Shown piece by piece: positions 18,853 to 48,143 of a stretch of DNA of 64,000 nt; the stretch's first letter is position 1, and every line of letters starts with the position of its first letter. The notes under the pieces are model-generated. The model did not search any database. It was not told the origin of the DNA and saw only the letters and a list, made by a program, of their open reading frames with translations. This DNA comes from Arenibacter sp. P308M17 (GTDB taxonomy: Bacteria; Bacteroidota; Bacteroidia; Flavobacteriales; Flavobacteriaceae). The translations under genes were made by a program, and so were the position numbers. The stretch covers positions 248,001-312,000 of the forward strand of contig NZ_QVON01000006.1 of assembly GCF_003426735.1 (NCBI RefSeq), in the 5' to 3' direction.

Positions 18853-18937
18853 ATGAAATGCCCATTAACAAATTGCAAACCAACCAACATGATCAACAGG
18901 GCATTACATCTGACCTATAAAAAAAAATGAGCAGATG
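18853..18937 (+). promoter_or_regulatory. Structured leader element (copy A) covering the start codon of the second sulfatase
   Basis: Two elements are visible. A 7-bp helix AATGCCC (18857-18863) / GGGCATT (18899-18905) closes a 35-nt loop with the conserved text ATTAACAAATT..AAACCAACC. Overlapping the 3' arm is the 13-mer ATTACATCTGACC (18903-18915). Its CATCTG (18907-18912) is complementary to CAGATG (18932-18937), which includes the ATG at 18935. Copies B (46703-46796, trkA) and C (45610-45717, minus strand, porT) have the same order of parts, with changed but still pairing closing arms. A start-codon-sequestering leader is the inference. Confidence 0.65.
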
Positions 18938-20584
18938 AAAAATATTCCTATTCTTTTAATAGCGGTACTACTACTTGTAGGCTGTAAAAACCAGGGGAAA
19001 GTCCAGGGAAAAAACCCAACGGAGACCAATCAAAGACCCAATATTCTATGGATCGTGGCGGAAGACCTTAGTCCGGTAATCCCATCGTTTGGAGATTCCA
19101 CAGTGGTTACTCCCAATATTAGCAGATTGGCGGCAGAAGGGGTCCGTTATACCAATGTCTTTTCGTCCTCAGGGGTATGTGCCCCCAGTAGGGCCGCTAT
19201 TGCCACGGGCATGTACCAGAACCATATAGGGGCGCACCATATGAGAAACCACGGTAACGGACCCAGTTATCCTGTTGGACTCCCATCTTATGAAGCCCTG
19301 CCTCCTGCAGTGGTGAAGATGCACAGTGAATACCTTAGAAGGATAGGATACTATTGTACCAATAACAGTAAAGAGGATTATCAATTTAAGGCCCCTGTAA
19401 CTGCATGGGATGAAAGCAGTAAGACCGCACACTGGAGAAACCGCAAACCCGAACAAGCTTTTTTTTCCATATTTAATTTGGGGGTTACGCACGAATCACA
19501 GATTTGGGCCAAGGCCCAGGATTCCCTTTGGGTGGATAAAGATCTTGAAGTGCCTGTTCCTCCTTATTTACCGGACAATGAAGTAGGCCGAACCGATCTT
19601 AGGAGAATGTATTCCAATATCAAGGAAATGGACCATCAGGTGGGAGAAATACTAACACAATTGGAGGAGGATGGACTGTTGGAAAATACGATTATATTTT
19701 GGTATGCCGATCACGGCGGTCCCTTGCCCCGACAAAAGCGATTATTGTACGATTCCGGTATGAGATTGCCTTTGGTAATCAGATATCCGGACAAGAAAGA
19801 TGCCGGTAAGGTAGATGATCGGTTGATAAGTTTTGTTGATTTTAAGCCCACCCTATTGTCCTTGGCCGGGATTGAGCCCCCGGAATATTTGGATGGCAGG
19901 GCTTTTGCCGGGGGATTTGAATCCAAGGAGGCCAGGAAATATTTGCATGGGGCCGCAGACAGGCTGGATGCCATCTATGATATGATCAGGGCGGTTAGGG
20001 ACAAGCGTTATAAATACCTGGAGAATTTTAGACCGGACCAAGGCTATTATTTGCCGGTAGTTTACAGGGAGCAAATGCCCGTAATGCAAGAATTGCTCCG
20101 TATGCGGGATAATAATGAACTTAACGAAGTTCAGGCGCAATGGTTTAGGGACAAAAAAGCGCCGGAAGAATTGTTCGATACATGGAACGATCCTTATGAA
20201 CTTCATAACTTGGCCTATAACCCACAGTATAAGGATAAATTAATTGAGCTCAGAGAGGAATGTGAGCGCTGGATGACGGCTATTGAGGATAAAGGTTTGC
20301 TGCCCGAAAAGGAGTATATAGCCTCTATTTGGCCACATGGGGAACAACCCGTTACCCAACCTCCCATCATACGACAGCGGAACAATATGGTGGAAATTCA
20401 TAGCGAAACCGAGGGAGCCTCCTTGGGGTACCAAGTGTTAAAGGAGAATGAGGGGTTAAAGAAATCCTGGCAAGTGTATACCGGAGCTTTTCCCATAGAT
20501 CCTGACAAGCGTGTCATATCCGTGGCACATAGGATCGGATATGTGCCAAGTGATCCTATAAGCTTTGAAGCTGGCAAATACTGA
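18935..20584 (+). CDS. Sulfatase lipoprotein, heparan N-sulfatase-like
   Basis: A 549-residue exported sulfatase with a clear lipoprotein signal (lipobox LLVGC, Cys at about residue 17). NILWIVAEDLSP forms the first metal site, and the formylglycine signature is CAPSR in SSSGVCAPSRAAIATG (about residues 79-94). YADHGGPLPRQKR is a later active-site segment. The overall layout, with LYDSGMRLPLVIRYP and a long C-terminal helical region, resembles N-sulfoglucosamine sulfohydrolases. The last ~80 residues (TQPPIIRQRNN..SETEGASLGYQV) look like a small beta domain of the chitobiase C-terminal type. The start ATG sits inside the leader element described at 18853-18937. Confidence 0.87.
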   Translation: MKNIPILLIAVLLLVGCKNQGKVQGKNPTETNQRPNILWIVAEDLSPVIPSFGDSTVVTPNISRLAAEGVRYTNVFSSSGVCAPSRAAIATGMYQNHIGAHHMRNHGNGPSYPVGLPSYEALPPAVVKMHSEYLRRIGYYCTNNSKEDYQFKAPVTAWDESSKTAHWRNRKPEQAFFSIFNLGVTHESQIWAKAQDSLWVDKDLEVPVPPYLPDNEVGRTDLRRMYSNIKEMDHQVGEILTQLEEDGLLENTIIFWYADHGGPLPRQKRLLYDSGMRLPLVIRYPDKKDAGKVDDRLISFVDFKPTLLSLAGIEPPEYLDGRAFAGGFESKEARKYLHGAADRLDAIYDMIRAVRDKRYKYLENFRPDQGYYLPVVYREQMPVMQELLRMRDNNELNEVQAQWFRDKKAPEELFDTWNDPYELHNLAYNPQYKDKLIELREECERWMTAIEDKGLLPEKEYIASIWPHGEQPVTQPPIIRQRNNMVEIHSETEGASLGYQVLKENEGLKKSWQVYTGAFPIDPDKRVISVAHRIGYVPSDPISFEAGKY

Positions 20585-39170: not shown

Positions 39171-39440
39171 TTATTTTCTAATTCCTAATTCCTTAATGAT
39201 GGCACGGTATCTAATGATATCCTTTTTGATCAAGTAATCCAAAAGGGATCTTCTCTTGCCTACCAATTTTACCAATGAGCGCTCCGTGTTAAAATCCTTG
39301 CGGTTCTTTTTCAAATGCTCAGTCAAGTGGTTGATTCTGTGGGTAAACAAGGCTATCTGCCCTTCAGCGGAACCTGTGTTTTTTTCTTCTCCGCCGTGTT
39401 TTTTAAAAATCTCGGCCTTTACTTCTTTGGTTAAATACAT
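39171..39440 (-). CDS. rpsO: 30S ribosomal protein S15
   Basis: An 89-residue S15, the usual size, which binds 16S rRNA in the central domain. It shows the family text GSAEGQIALFTHRINHLTEHLKKN, followed by DFNTERSLVKLVGKRRSLLDYL. An open frame continues 15 codons upstream, but the conserved protein begins at MYLTKEVKAEIF, so ATG 39440 is the start. Gene order rpsO-pnp is conserved widely in bacteria. Confidence 0.97.
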   Translation of the reverse strand: MYLTKEVKAEIFKKHGGEEKNTGSAEGQIALFTHRINHLTEHLKKNRKDFNTERSLVKLVGKRRSLLDYLIKKDIIRYRAIIKELGIRK

Positions 39441-39557
39441 TCCAATATTATTTAAATGATTTTTATGTACATGATTGATTTTCAATCAGGGCGCAAAGAT
39501 AGACTTTTTTTTAGAAACCTTGTGCAATCCTATTATTTTTTGAAAAGGGATTATTTT

Positions 39558-44916: not shown

Positions 44917-45612
44917 CTACTCAAAGGTAAAGTTGATAAACATCCCCCTGGTCATCATTGCCTCAATATTGCCCGTCCAAGGACTATTGGGGTCATTGTC
45001 CCGCACCAATTCATCATTTATGGCGAAGACCCCTCGGATAGAAGGGGTGAACTTGAAATATTCCAGATAGAAATCGATCCCGAAACCCATTTCGTAATAA
45101 TAGGTGGTCTTCTTCATTCGGAAAGTGCCACTGCTGTTATCGTCCAAACTTTGTTCATTGCTGCCCAAGTTCATTGAGGTTGACGCCCCGCCAATAAGAA
45201 ATGGTTTCCAGTTTCCCAATCTTTTGGTGCTTACTTTTAGGAGTAATGGGAAATTAATATAGGTCGATTTCACTTCCCTAATGGCATCCCTTTCGTTGTC
45301 AAATCCTGGAAAGCCCAAATTTCTCTGGTTGTAGTGCAATCCAGGTTCAAAACGAAGGTCCAAAAATTTGTTGAGACGCAGTTCTCCGATAAGCCCTACA
45401 TTGAATCCAAATGATTTGTCCACCAAAATATCGGGGAGATCATCTTTGTATTCAAATTTAAAATCGTATTGATTGAAGCCTAAAAAATATCCCCAATTTA
45501 GTAATGGCTCGTCCTCACTTTCAAGGTTCATTACGGGTTTTTCATTAAACTGGGCATTGGTCGTGTTGCCCAGCGTACAAAAAACAATTAAAAGAACAAA
45601 AATAGTTTTCAT
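44917..45612 (-). CDS. porT: PorT-like outer membrane protein of the type IX secretion system
   Basis: A 231-residue protein with a signal peptide cleaved after about residue 20 (..TTNAQF) and alternating strands of a small outer membrane beta barrel (GFNVGLIGELRLNKFLDLRFEPGLHY; YEMGFGIDFYLEYFKFTPSIRG; final Phe in MFINFTFE). Size, layout and position behind ubiE match PorT/SprT, needed for type IX secretion and gliding in Flavobacteriaceae. The call depends on synteny more than on a motif. Its start codon lies in copy C of the structured leader element, which fills the whole gap between ubiE and this gene. Confidence 0.75.
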   Translation of the reverse strand: MKTIFVLLIVFCTLGNTTNAQFNEKPVMNLESEDEPLLNWGYFLGFNQYDFKFEYKDDLPDILVDKSFGFNVGLIGELRLNKFLDLRFEPGLHYNQRNLGFPGFDNERDAIREVKSTYINFPLLLKVSTKRLGNWKPFLIGGASTSMNLGSNEQSLDDNSSGTFRMKKTTYYYEMGFGIDFYLEYFKFTPSIRGVFAINDELVRDNDPNSPWTGNIEAMMTRGMFINFTFE

Positions 45613-45717
45613 CTGTTGATAATTATTTATTTTTAAAGGTCAGATGTAATTCGCCAATCTATATTTCGTCCCGAAAGCTATTGGGAGGTGTCCAGAATTG
45701 TTATGGCTCATTTCATG
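45610..45717 (-). promoter_or_regulatory. Structured leader element (copy C) between ubiE and porT
   Basis: Read on the minus strand: TGAAAT, then AATGAGCC (+ strand 45705-45712) pairing with GGCGAATT (45648-45655) through three plus three pairs and a central tandem G-A/A-G mismatch. A 49-nt loop starts ATAACAATT. Overlapping the 3' arm is ATTACATCTGACC (45638-45650), whose CATCTG is complementary to the CAGATG (45610-45615) that contains the porT start codon. The element occupies the 107-nt gap right after the ubiE stop. Copies A and B are at 18853-18937 and 46703-46796. Confidence 0.65.
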
Positions 45718-46700: not shown

Positions 46701-46702
46701 GG

Positions 46703-46796
46703 TGAAATATCCATTAGCAAAATTTTCAAACCCACCGAAAATGATTACTTGGATATTACATCTGACCGATAAAAAAACAATAAATACAAACAGATG
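46703..46796 (+). promoter_or_regulatory. Structured leader element (copy B) covering the trkA start codon
   Basis: TGAAAT is followed by the 7-bp helix AATATCC (46706-46712) / GGATATT (46751-46757), closing a 38-nt loop that starts ATTAGCAAAATT and contains AAACCCACC. Then comes ATTACATCTGACC (46755-46767), whose CATCTG (46759-46764) is complementary to CAGATG (46791-46796) at the trkA ATG (46794). Compared with copy A, two positions of the closing helix change on both arms and pairing is kept. Confidence 0.65.
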
Positions 46797-48143
46797 AAAA
46801 TTATTATTGCAGGGGCTGGGGAAGTAGGTTTTCATTTGGCTAAATTATTGTCTTATGAATCCCAGGATATTACGCTTATAGATAGTAATAAAGATAGTCT
46901 GTCCTATGCAGACAGTCATTTGGACATTAGGGTCCTTAAGGGAGACGCCACGTCCATAGCCATTTTAAAGGATGCGCAAGTTGAGAAATCGGATCTGGTC
47001 ATTGGGGTAACCTCTTCGGAGACTACTAATATTACTTTGTGTATGCTGGCAAAACAATTGGGTTGCAGGCGTACCATTGCACGTATTTCCAATGCTGAGT
47101 TTATCCATAATAAGGATGCTATTCGATTTTCGGACCTGGGTATCGATGAGCTTATTTCACCGGAGGCTTTGGCCGCTACTGAAATACAACTATTATTGAA
47201 TCAATCCGCGTTTAACAATACCTATGAATTTGAGGAAGGGCTTTTGATCATGGTGGGCGTATCCCTGCCAAGTACCGCCCCTTTTGTAGGAAAGACGGTC
47301 ATGGAGGCCGCAACCATATTTCCCGAGCTTCATTTTATGCCCATTGCCATTCAAAGGATGGGTACCCAATACACTATTGTGCCTAGGGGCGATACCGTTT
47401 TTAAGGATAACGATCAGGTGTACTTTATAACGTCCAAGGAGGGCTTGGATGAACTGTACAAACTCACCGGAAAGGAGAAAAAGGAGATCAAAAACGTTAT
47501 GATACTTGGTGGCAGCAAGGTGGGCTTCAAAACCGCCAGGGACCTTTGTAGAAATAGGTTTAATGTAAAATTGATCGAGAAAAATAAGGAAAAGGCCTTC
47601 GATCTGGCAGATGAACTGCCCAATGCCCTTATCATTAACGGCGATGGTAGAAATGTAGAACTGTTGGAAGAGGAAAATCTGGGGGCCATGGACGCTTTTG
47701 TAGCGGTTACCGGAAATTCGGAAACCAATATAATGTCTTGCTTGGTGGCCAAATCCAAGCATGTTAAAAAGACAATTGCCCTGGTGGAGAATATGGATTA
47801 TTTTCAATTGTCGCATTCCATAGGGATAGATACCCTGCTGAACAAAAAGCTGCTCGCCGCCAATAATATCTTCAGGCATATCCGGAAAGGGGAAATAGTG
47901 GCGATGACCCGGCTCAATAATCTGAATGCGGAGATTTTGGAATTTATCGTTAAGCCGACCTCCCAGGTAAACGGGCAATTGATCAGGGAACTGGAATTTC
48001 CTCGGGAAGCCACCATTGGCGGGGTAATCCGTGATAATCAGGGAATTATTGCCTTGGGAGGGTTTAGGATAACAGAGGGCGATAGGGTAGTGGTATGTTG
48101 TTTGCCAAGTGCCATCCCAAAAATAGAAAAGCTTTTCCTTTAG
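46794..48143 (+). CDS. trkA: Trk system potassium uptake regulatory protein TrkA
   Basis: Cytoplasmic NAD(H)-binding gating subunit of the Trk potassium transporter. The 449-residue product is a tandem duplication of RCK domains: the first Rossmann loop is GAGEVGFHLAKLL (about residues 6-18) and the second is MILGGSKVGFKTARDL (about 236-251). Each is followed by a TrkA_C domain, the second ending GGFRITEGDRVVVCCLP. It is followed by trkH after one base. Translation may be controlled by the leader at 46703-46796. Confidence 0.93.
   Translation: MKIIIAGAGEVGFHLAKLLSYESQDITLIDSNKDSLSYADSHLDIRVLKGDATSIAILKDAQVEKSDLVIGVTSSETTNITLCMLAKQLGCRRTIARISNAEFIHNKDAIRFSDLGIDELISPEALAATEIQLLLNQSAFNNTYEFEEGLLIMVGVSLPSTAPFVGKTVMEAATIFPELHFMPIAIQRMGTQYTIVPRGDTVFKDNDQVYFITSKEGLDELYKLTGKEKKEIKNVMILGGSKVGFKTARDLCRNRFNVKLIEKNKEKAFDLADELPNALIINGDGRNVELLEEENLGAMDAFVAVTGNSETNIMSCLVAKSKHVKKTIALVENMDYFQLSHSIGIDTLLNKKLLAANNIFRHIRKGEIVAMTRLNNLNAEILEFIVKPTSQVNGQLIRELEFPREATIGGVIRDNQGIIALGGFRITEGDRVVVCCLPSAIPKIEKLFL

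What the first reader, a model, noticed from the sequence alone, without database searches (positions are those of the whole stretch)
18853..18937. Undescribed structured leader in three copies that can hide the start codon
Three unrelated genes, a sulfatase (18935), trkA (46794) and porT (45612, minus), carry the same arrangement: TGAAAT, a closing helix, a loop starting ATTARCAAA/ATAACAA and (A, B) containing AAACC.ACC, then the identical 13-mer ATTACATCTGACC, an A-rich spacer, and CAGATG with the start ATG. CATCTG in the 13-mer is the exact complement of CAGATG. The closing helix changes on both arms between copies (AATGCCC/GGGCATT, AATATCC/GGATATT, and AATGAGCC/GGCGAATT with a tandem G-A mismatch), which is covariation and not plain DNA identity. 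This is the layout of a sensor domain followed by a translational switch. Whether it is a riboswitch, a protein-binding leader or an already catalogued flavobacterial RNA motif (Flavo-1 should be compared) is open.
Basis: partly seen in the sequence, partly recalled or inferred. Interest (0 to 1): 0.87.

Follow-up and report, generated by a model that had tools for sequence, protein, structure and literature searches.

The report
Mobile element targeting gene start codons
The three look-alike leaders are copies of a tiny (about 60-110 base) mobile DNA element, found widely in bacteria of the phylum Bacteroidota, that inserts exactly at ATGAAA, usually a gene's start codon, and brings a replacement start codon with it; the enzyme that moves it is unknown.

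Summary
The three copies score 81-91 bits with a covariance model they helped to train. Helix 1 covaries, and CATCTG pairs with start-codon CAGATG in three compensatory forms (C-G, A-T, G-C). But they are copies of a short mobile element. The home genome (by inference Arenibacter) has 33 hits, before unrelated genes. In relatives the same start codons are empty: porT in 13 of 18 (5 not alignable), leuB 6 of 6, etfB 5 of 5, serC 3 of 5. Insertions lie exactly at ATG|AAA, leaving RTGAAA at the left end and CANATGAAA at the right. One genome holds five inspected identical copies before different sequences. 111 of 249 family genomes have hits; database copies reach Cytophagales and Bacteroidales. 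No Rfam family reached its threshold. Best explanation: a non-autonomous mobile element that finds start codons by an internal guide and supplies its own initiation region. The mobilising enzyme was not found: Y1 transposases show only a loose association and reverse transcriptase is missing from a genome with identical copies. Start-codon hiding in mRNA remains possible, untested.

The parts
18853..18940 (+). Element copy 1, between the upstream ATG (18853) and the sulfatase start; its last six bases are ATGAAA of the gene
   Evidence: R1 hit 80.9 bits; sequence; sulfatase by Pfam PF00884
18857..18863 (+). Helix 1, 5' arm AATGCCC (copy 1)
   Evidence: pairs with 18899-18905; covaries over copies
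18899..18905 (+). Helix 1, 3' arm GGGCATT (copy 1)
18907..18912 (+). Guide CATCTG (copy 1)
   Evidence: complement of 18932-18937; three compensatory states over the copies
18932..18937 (+). Right end CAGATG holding the new start codon (copy 1)
   Evidence: ORF 18935-20584
46702..46799 (+). Element copy 2, before trkA; left end is GTGAAA
   Evidence: R1 hit 90.8 bits; TrkA_N by Pfam
46759..46764 (+). Guide CATCTG (copy 2)
   Evidence: pairs with 46791-46796
46791..46796 (+). Right end CAGATG with the trkA start codon
45607..45716 (-). Element copy 3, before porT; an insertion relative to 13 of 18 relatives, the other 5 not alignable
   Evidence: R1 hit 84.5 bits; empty sites in relatives
45641..45646 (-). 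Guide CATCTG (copy 3)
45610..45615 (-). Right end CAGATG with the porT start codon

Best explanation
A short non-autonomous mobile element, about 58-110 nt where no other repeat has entered it, inserts at the hexamer ATGAAA, mostly where that is a gene's start codon. Shown: inserted and empty alleles differ by exactly this unit, placed between ATG and the second codon AAA, so that RTGAAA stands at both ends. The unit is one hairpin (helix 1, often with a tandem G-A mismatch), then a guide CATNTG, an A-rich stretch of about 20 nt, and CANATG, which becomes the gene's new start. The new start therefore reads the old gene unchanged, and in 90 of 148 copies the old start is followed by AAA and a stop (Met-Lys-stop). 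Inferred: the guide recognises the element's right end (6 bp) and the target's ATG (3 bp) on a folded strand, probably the sense strand, when an enzyme acting in trans cuts and joins; because the element carries its own initiation region, insertion is nearly harmless at a start codon. The enzyme is unidentified.
For: Empty sites with the 40-base upstream flank more alike than every one of 200 shuffles: porT 13/18, leuB 6/6, etfB 5/5, serC 3/5, msrA 2/4 (by one base) relatives. Sharp borders: outside RTG and ATGAAA the 24 aligned copies vary. 33 hits in the home genome and hits in 18 of 18 genomes of the genus at E up to 0.01; 111 of 249 in the family at E up to 1e-4. Five inspected copies in genome G035 are identical over 97 nt and sit before different sequences, four of them open frames and one a 14-codon frame; eight hits there score alike. 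Head-to-tail copies sharing one ATGAAA in G004 and G191. Upstream flanks of L186, L199, L201, L212, L217 look like right ends of older copies. Guide/end middle pair in 82 copies found by the model: C-G 46, A-T 19, G-C 11, T-G 2, other 4; the G-C form was not in the training set. New ATG opens an ORF of 50 codons or more in 134 of 148 distinct copies, one more cut by the locus end, against 115 of 223 intergenic ATGAAA sites; for the 28-genome set alone 26/28, p 3e-6. Tandem G-A in 49 of 82 and two Watson-Crick pairs in 21 of 82 at the same place favour the sense strand; the other strand would have T-C mismatches. G-T exceeds A-C in helix 1, 56 to 27 cells.
Against: No mobilising enzyme found. 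Upstream flanks at cyt, GS and GNAT are not alignable, so those sites prove nothing; five yaaA loci were fetched but not scored. Two GS loci of relatives carry weak hits. No relative with the 5' end of the sulfatase at close identity was found, so that copy's insertion was not shown directly. The trkA upstream regions are diverged. Strand evidence is mixed: with DNA parameters the sense strand is more stable in 111 of 146 elements and 97 of 135 helix-1 domains, with RNA parameters in only 56 of 146 and 78 of 135; in the guide helix G-T is not above A-C, 4 to 6. The start-codon excess could come from selection alone.
Confidence: 0.88

Rival explanations
1. A cis-regulatory RNA leader (riboswitch or protein-binding) in which the hairpin senses something and CAUCUG hides or frees the AUG.
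For: Conserved covarying structure; CAUCUG:CAGAUG helix predicted in RNA with mean probability 0.64 in 138 copies, many chosen for that pairing; sense orientation before genes.
Against: Downstream genes are unrelated; close relatives' orthologues lack it (2 of 76 loci with weak hits); empty sites; nested and tandem copies; 13 of 148 distinct copies have no 50-codon ORF behind them, one more is cut off. Fold energies of the three window copies do not stand out from shuffles: z -1.33, -0.35 and 0.11.
Confidence: 0.06
2. A non-autonomous derivative of an IS200/IS605-type or REP/TnpAREP-type (Y1 HUH) element, moved in trans by a Y1 transposase, with cleavage at TTTCAT on the antisense strand.
For: Antisense reading gives cleavage site, linker, guide and then hairpin, the order described for IS200/IS605 ends (passages of PMC6006769 and PMC8266576). 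Genomes with copies have Y1 genes more often: 56 of 111 against 41 of 138, p 0.001. The three genomes with equal-scoring, hence probably recent, copies in the capped list (G035, G154, G191) have 14, 10 and 6 Y1 matches.
Against: 11 of 29 genomes with 7 or more hits have no PF01797 match. No intact element beside 60 Y1 loci within the stretches held; two (L104, L109) have a weak, decayed one. The IS200-like elements read in G035, G191 and G154 have other ends. Y1 proteins resembling subclass 1.2 (my assignment by motif) show little association: 15 of 27 genomes with them have copies, 111 of 249 overall. The G-A mismatch suits the sense strand, where the guide would be on the 3' side. PF01797 only partly covers REP-type enzymes (PMC6006769), so some may be missed.
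Confidence: 0.3
3. A retroelement: the RNA is reverse-transcribed into start codons by a host reverse transcriptase.
For: Sense-strand structure; start codons exposed in mRNA; GTG left ends (9 of 147) still pair with CAU through a wobble (inference). G154 and G191, with probably recent copies, have 12 and 3 RVT_1 matches.
Against: G035, with five identical copies read, has no RVT_1 match at 99% completeness; RVT_1 is in only 69 of 249 genomes. Co-occurrence with copies was not computed, and other reverse transcriptase families were not searched.
Confidence: 0.06
4. Classical MITE of a DDE transposon with a 6-bp target duplication ATGAAA.
For: ATGAAA at both ends, short and dispersed.
Against: No terminal inverted repeats (read): the ends read TGAGCC.. 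and ..AACAG; fixed target sequence; covarying internal guide. DDE families were not searched.
Confidence: 0.04

Closest known systems
REP elements with TnpAREP/RAYT (incl. TnpAY1 subclass 2.6 of Bacteroidetes)
   Same: Short dispersed hairpin, in some families with a fixed mismatch in the stem, thought to be moved in trans; mostly between genes. PMC6006769 reports atypical structures beside subclass 2.6 genes (section 12 and passages read).
   Different: No GT[AG]G foot, target fixed at ATGAAA, a second guide helix to its own end, no intact copy beside 60 Y1 loci. The subclass 2.6 structures (figure and supplement) were not seen.
IS200/IS605 family and its non-autonomous derivatives
   Same: No inverted ends, short fixed target, guide pairing with the cleavage site.
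   Different: About 100 nt with no gene, one hairpin; 6-bp guide; sense strand favoured, which puts the guide 3' of the hairpin; no Y1 partner found.
MITEs
   Same: Short, non-autonomous, many copies.
   Different: No terminal inverted repeats.
Flavo-1 and other Rfam leaders
   Same: Structured, in Flavobacteriia (Flavo-1's range is recalled).
   Different: No Rfam match at threshold; mobile, no regulon.

Membership tests
Riboswitch / cis-regulatory leader | Conserved with orthologous genes or a coherent set of genes | tested here: not met
   2 of 76 orthologous loci with weak hits; unrelated genes
Riboswitch / cis-regulatory leader | Structure changes expression on a signal | not testable with these tools
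   needs in-line probing and reporters
Flavo-1 or any Rfam family | Covariance-model match at the family's threshold | tested here: not met
   (gathering, window); two searches gave only five sub-threshold hits to other families
Mobile element | Empty and filled alleles with precise borders | tested here: met
Mobile element | Identical copies in unrelated places of one genome | tested here: met
   G035, five inspected copies identical over 97 nt
MITE | Terminal inverted repeats | tested here: not met
   read from the alignment
REP / TnpAREP | GT[AG]G at the hairpin foot | tested here: not met
   RTGAAAT at the foot
REP / TnpAREP | Copies beside a cognate Y1 gene | tested here: not met
   60 Y1 loci, two weak decayed matches only; not every Y1 gene of these genomes was held
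IS200/IS605-derived element | Guide pairs with the cleavage site | tested here: inconclusive
   the guide pairs with CANATG in three compensatory states, but that CANATG is a cleavage site is inferred
IS200/IS605-derived element | Autonomous relative with the same ends | tested here: not met
   none among the Y1 loci held
IS200/IS605-derived element | Cleavage by a Y1 transposase | not testable with these tools
   biochemistry needed

The most novel reading that the evidence does not exclude
A new class of minimal mobile element whose target is the translation start itself: an internal 6-nt guide that reads both the element's own end and the start codon directs insertion at ATG|AAA, and the element hands the gene a new initiation region, so it spreads through housekeeping genes at almost no cost. 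The enzyme belongs to no family tested here.
Probability: 0.4. Interest if true: 0.93.

Novelty: new variant of a known kind. Interest (0 to 1): 0.83.

Why it matters
It would be a mobile element that makes start codons its landing site and survives by replacing what it displaces. It also re-writes the 5' untranslated region of core genes (inserts are seen before leuB-, serC- and etfB-like genes, trkA and porT) in many genera of one phylum, so annotated starts, leaders and RNA-motif searches there are affected. It gives a ready test of how guide pairing directs insertion, and a search target: an unknown integrating enzyme.

Tried and rejected
Upstream reading frame: the trkA copy's frame ends at TGA over the new ATG (read), but 90 of 148 distinct copies give Met-Lys-stop, so no conserved peptide. 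Y1 transposases as carriers: rejected among the loci held, not as trans-movers. Reverse transcriptase. A partner gene beside the copies: no family in more than 6 of 80 loci (609 ORFs). Plasmids, phages (one 98-base query each) and viral contigs (one exact pattern): no match. An IS200-like element starting after TTTCAT in G191 and G248 looked promising, but a related G191 element did not bear it out. Rows dropped: of loci L001-L036, 11 were left out of the first alignment (chance hits or decayed/nested copies) plus one identical row; six further copies with nested palindromes were left out of A3. Of 33 home-genome hits 26 were fetched, 21 of those 26 gave frames of 81-87 residues to the stretch end, one a 12-residue frame, and four were misread by the script (start taken at the guide, or CGGATG missed). 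The 80 loci were selected for CATCTG/CAGATG, so their guide pair is not counted as evidence. A5 shares copies with the A3 training set; A4 does not, though its members were found by R1. One search counted three copies twice (151 rows); one search recounts 148 distinct ones. Nine paper searches listed, by title and start of abstract, no description of such an element; most subscription journals are not in that library.

Full report
What is there. The window holds three copies of one unit. Copies in the wider genome show its true borders. In 24 aligned copies the sequence left of RTGAAAT (one GTGAGAT) varies, and what lies right of ATGAAA belongs to the gene. Inside are helix 1, the guide CATNTG within ATTACATNTGACC, an A-rich stretch, and CANATGAAA.

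More than chance. The exact 13-mer occurs 9 times in the home genome. Of 31 genomes searched, home genome included, 9 have it, all of one genus; the reversed-pattern control gave none. A covariance model built from 18 copies gives 33 hits in the home genome and hits in all 18 genomes of the genus at E up to 0.01. In 249 genomes of the family it finds hits in 111 at E up to 1e-4, with stricter filters. The 80 loci held carry Bacteroidota names as far as I know them, among them Arenibacter, Maribacter, Tenacibaculum, Polaribacter, Gillisia, Aquimarina, Sinomicrobium, Marivirga (Cytophagales) and Bacteroidales bins. A copy from Arenibacter certesii (L322) and one from genome G008 read alike, so the window is probably from an Arenibacter (Flavobacteriaceae); that is inference.

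Structure. In 28 copies from 28 family genomes, 7 of 10 helix-1 pairs change on both sides. Covariation score and cells paired exceed all 500 shuffles and all slid versions; pairs changed on both sides were reached by 4 of 500 shuffles and further pair types by 124 of 500. These copies were found and aligned with the model, so the counts lean towards its structure. The guide pair appears in three forms: CATCTG/CAGATG 39, CATATG/CATATG 15, CATGTG/CACATG 11 of 82. The third form was not in the training set. At one place in helix 1, 49 of 82 copies have a tandem G-A mismatch and 21 of 82 two Watson-Crick pairs. That suits a folded sense strand, because the antisense strand would have T-C mismatches. 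Other strand evidence is mixed. G-T exceeds A-C in helix 1 (56 to 27 cells) but not in the guide helix (4 to 6). DNA parameters favour the sense strand (111 of 146 elements), RNA parameters do not (56 of 146).

It moves. In the genus, orthologous genes without the unit read straight through..GCTACAAAGTAAAAT|ATGAAAAAT.. where the window has ..GTAAAAC ATG[AAATGAGCC...AACAGATG]AAAACT.. before porT. Upstream identity over 40 bases exceeded every one of 200 shuffles for porT in 13 of 18 relatives, leuB 6 of 6, etfB 5 of 5, serC 3 of 5 and msrA 2 of 4 (by one base). In the other 5 porT loci the start was not located. It did not exceed them for cyt, GS or GNAT. Five yaaA loci were read but not scored. 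The model finds no hit at E up to 1 in 74 of 76 orthologous loci; the two hits are weak remnants at the GS gene. In G035 five inspected copies are identical over 97 bases and sit before different sequences. Tandem copies share a single ATGAAA (G004; G191). For the sulfatase copy of the finding, the best relative match (76% identity) covers only residues 127-544, so no empty site could be read.

Where it lands. The second codon after the new start is AAA in 27 of 28, 51 of 54 and 66 of 66 distinct copies; the last set was selected for it. An ORF of at least 50 codons follows in 26 of 28, 49 of 54 and 59 of 66, together 134 of 148; 13 are shorter and one is cut off. Intergenic ATGAAA sites in the 80 loci, by a crude gene call, are start-like in only 115 of 223; 761 further sites lie inside genes. 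So the hexamer is the target and start codons are favoured, by mechanism or by selection. Genes hit in the home genome look like glutamine synthetase, LeuB, SerC, EtfB, YaaA, MsrA, a SulP transporter and others; these names, and cyt and GNAT, are recalled from the sequences. Only the sulfatase, TrkA and an outer-membrane beta-barrel for porT were checked with Pfam.

How it may work. Shown: insertion at ATG|AAA, the guide pairing, the new start. Inferred: the guide also reads the target's ATG. An enzyme in trans cuts a folded single strand. The A-rich stretch serves translation of the new start. In mRNA the guide can cover the start codon (mean pair probability 0.64; not in the best fold of the porT copy), so an effect on translation is possible as a by-product.

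What moves it. Y1 (PF01797) genes are enriched in genomes with hits (56 of 111 against 41 of 138, p 0.001). Yet 11 of 29 genomes with 7 or more hits have none, and none of 60 Y1 loci held carries an intact element; two carry weak, decayed ones. A profile of Y1 proteins resembling subclass 1.2 of PMC6006769 marks 27 genomes at E below 1e-30, 15 with hits (compared). Reverse transcriptase (PF00078) is absent from G035, though G154 and G191 have 12 and 3 matches. The neighbours of 80 copies share no gene family beyond 6 loci. PMC6006769 (section 12 and passages read) describes Y1 enzymes of Bacteroidetes with atypical structures; I could not see those structures.

Known or new. No Rfam family reached its threshold. 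It fails defining features of MITEs and of canonical REPs. It resembles IS200/IS605 in logic but not in the favoured strand, size or partner. Nine paper searches listed no such element. I file it as a new variant of small non-autonomous mobile elements; a new class remains open.

Noticed in passing
L001, L003, L004, L010, L017, L023, L030, L034, L109: Other palindromes sit inside element copies (CCCGATAATTATCGGG; CCTGTCTGCCGAACAGGCAGG; GATTCACGA..TCGTGAGTAA), so the loop and spacer seem to receive further small repeats.
   Followed up: partly
window 39438-39501 (-): S15-Flavobacteria ribosomal protein leader (RF03161, 77 bits), an ordinary leader.
   Followed up: no
L115 1363-1422 and 2040-2055: A RAYT-like Y1 gene of the home genome is flanked by its own palindromes (CCCGCCAGTT..AACTGGTGGG), unlike the element.
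   Followed up: partly
L321, L370, L385: Minimal copies of about 58-62 nt with one simple hairpin: the smallest forms seen.
   Followed up: no
L197 and L309: serC-like start codons carry CATGTG/CACATG copies in two genera; serC of the home genus's relatives read here lacks one, so the hits look independent.
   Followed up: no
L254 217-286: Weak copy before glutamine synthetase in a relative with CATTGG/CCTATG, a possible compensatory change at another guide pair.
   Followed up: no
L038-L042, last 30 bases before trkA: Relatives have sequences like GATGAAAAACAATTTATATAACAGATGAAA, possibly a remnant of an older copy's right end.
   Followed up: partly
L329, L334, L336, L364, L372, L384, L392: A diverged subfamily with a long second helix (AACCGACATGATTAAAATAAT..ATTATTTTAATCATCAAAGGTT) in bacterial bins and Sinomicrobium.
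   Followed up: no
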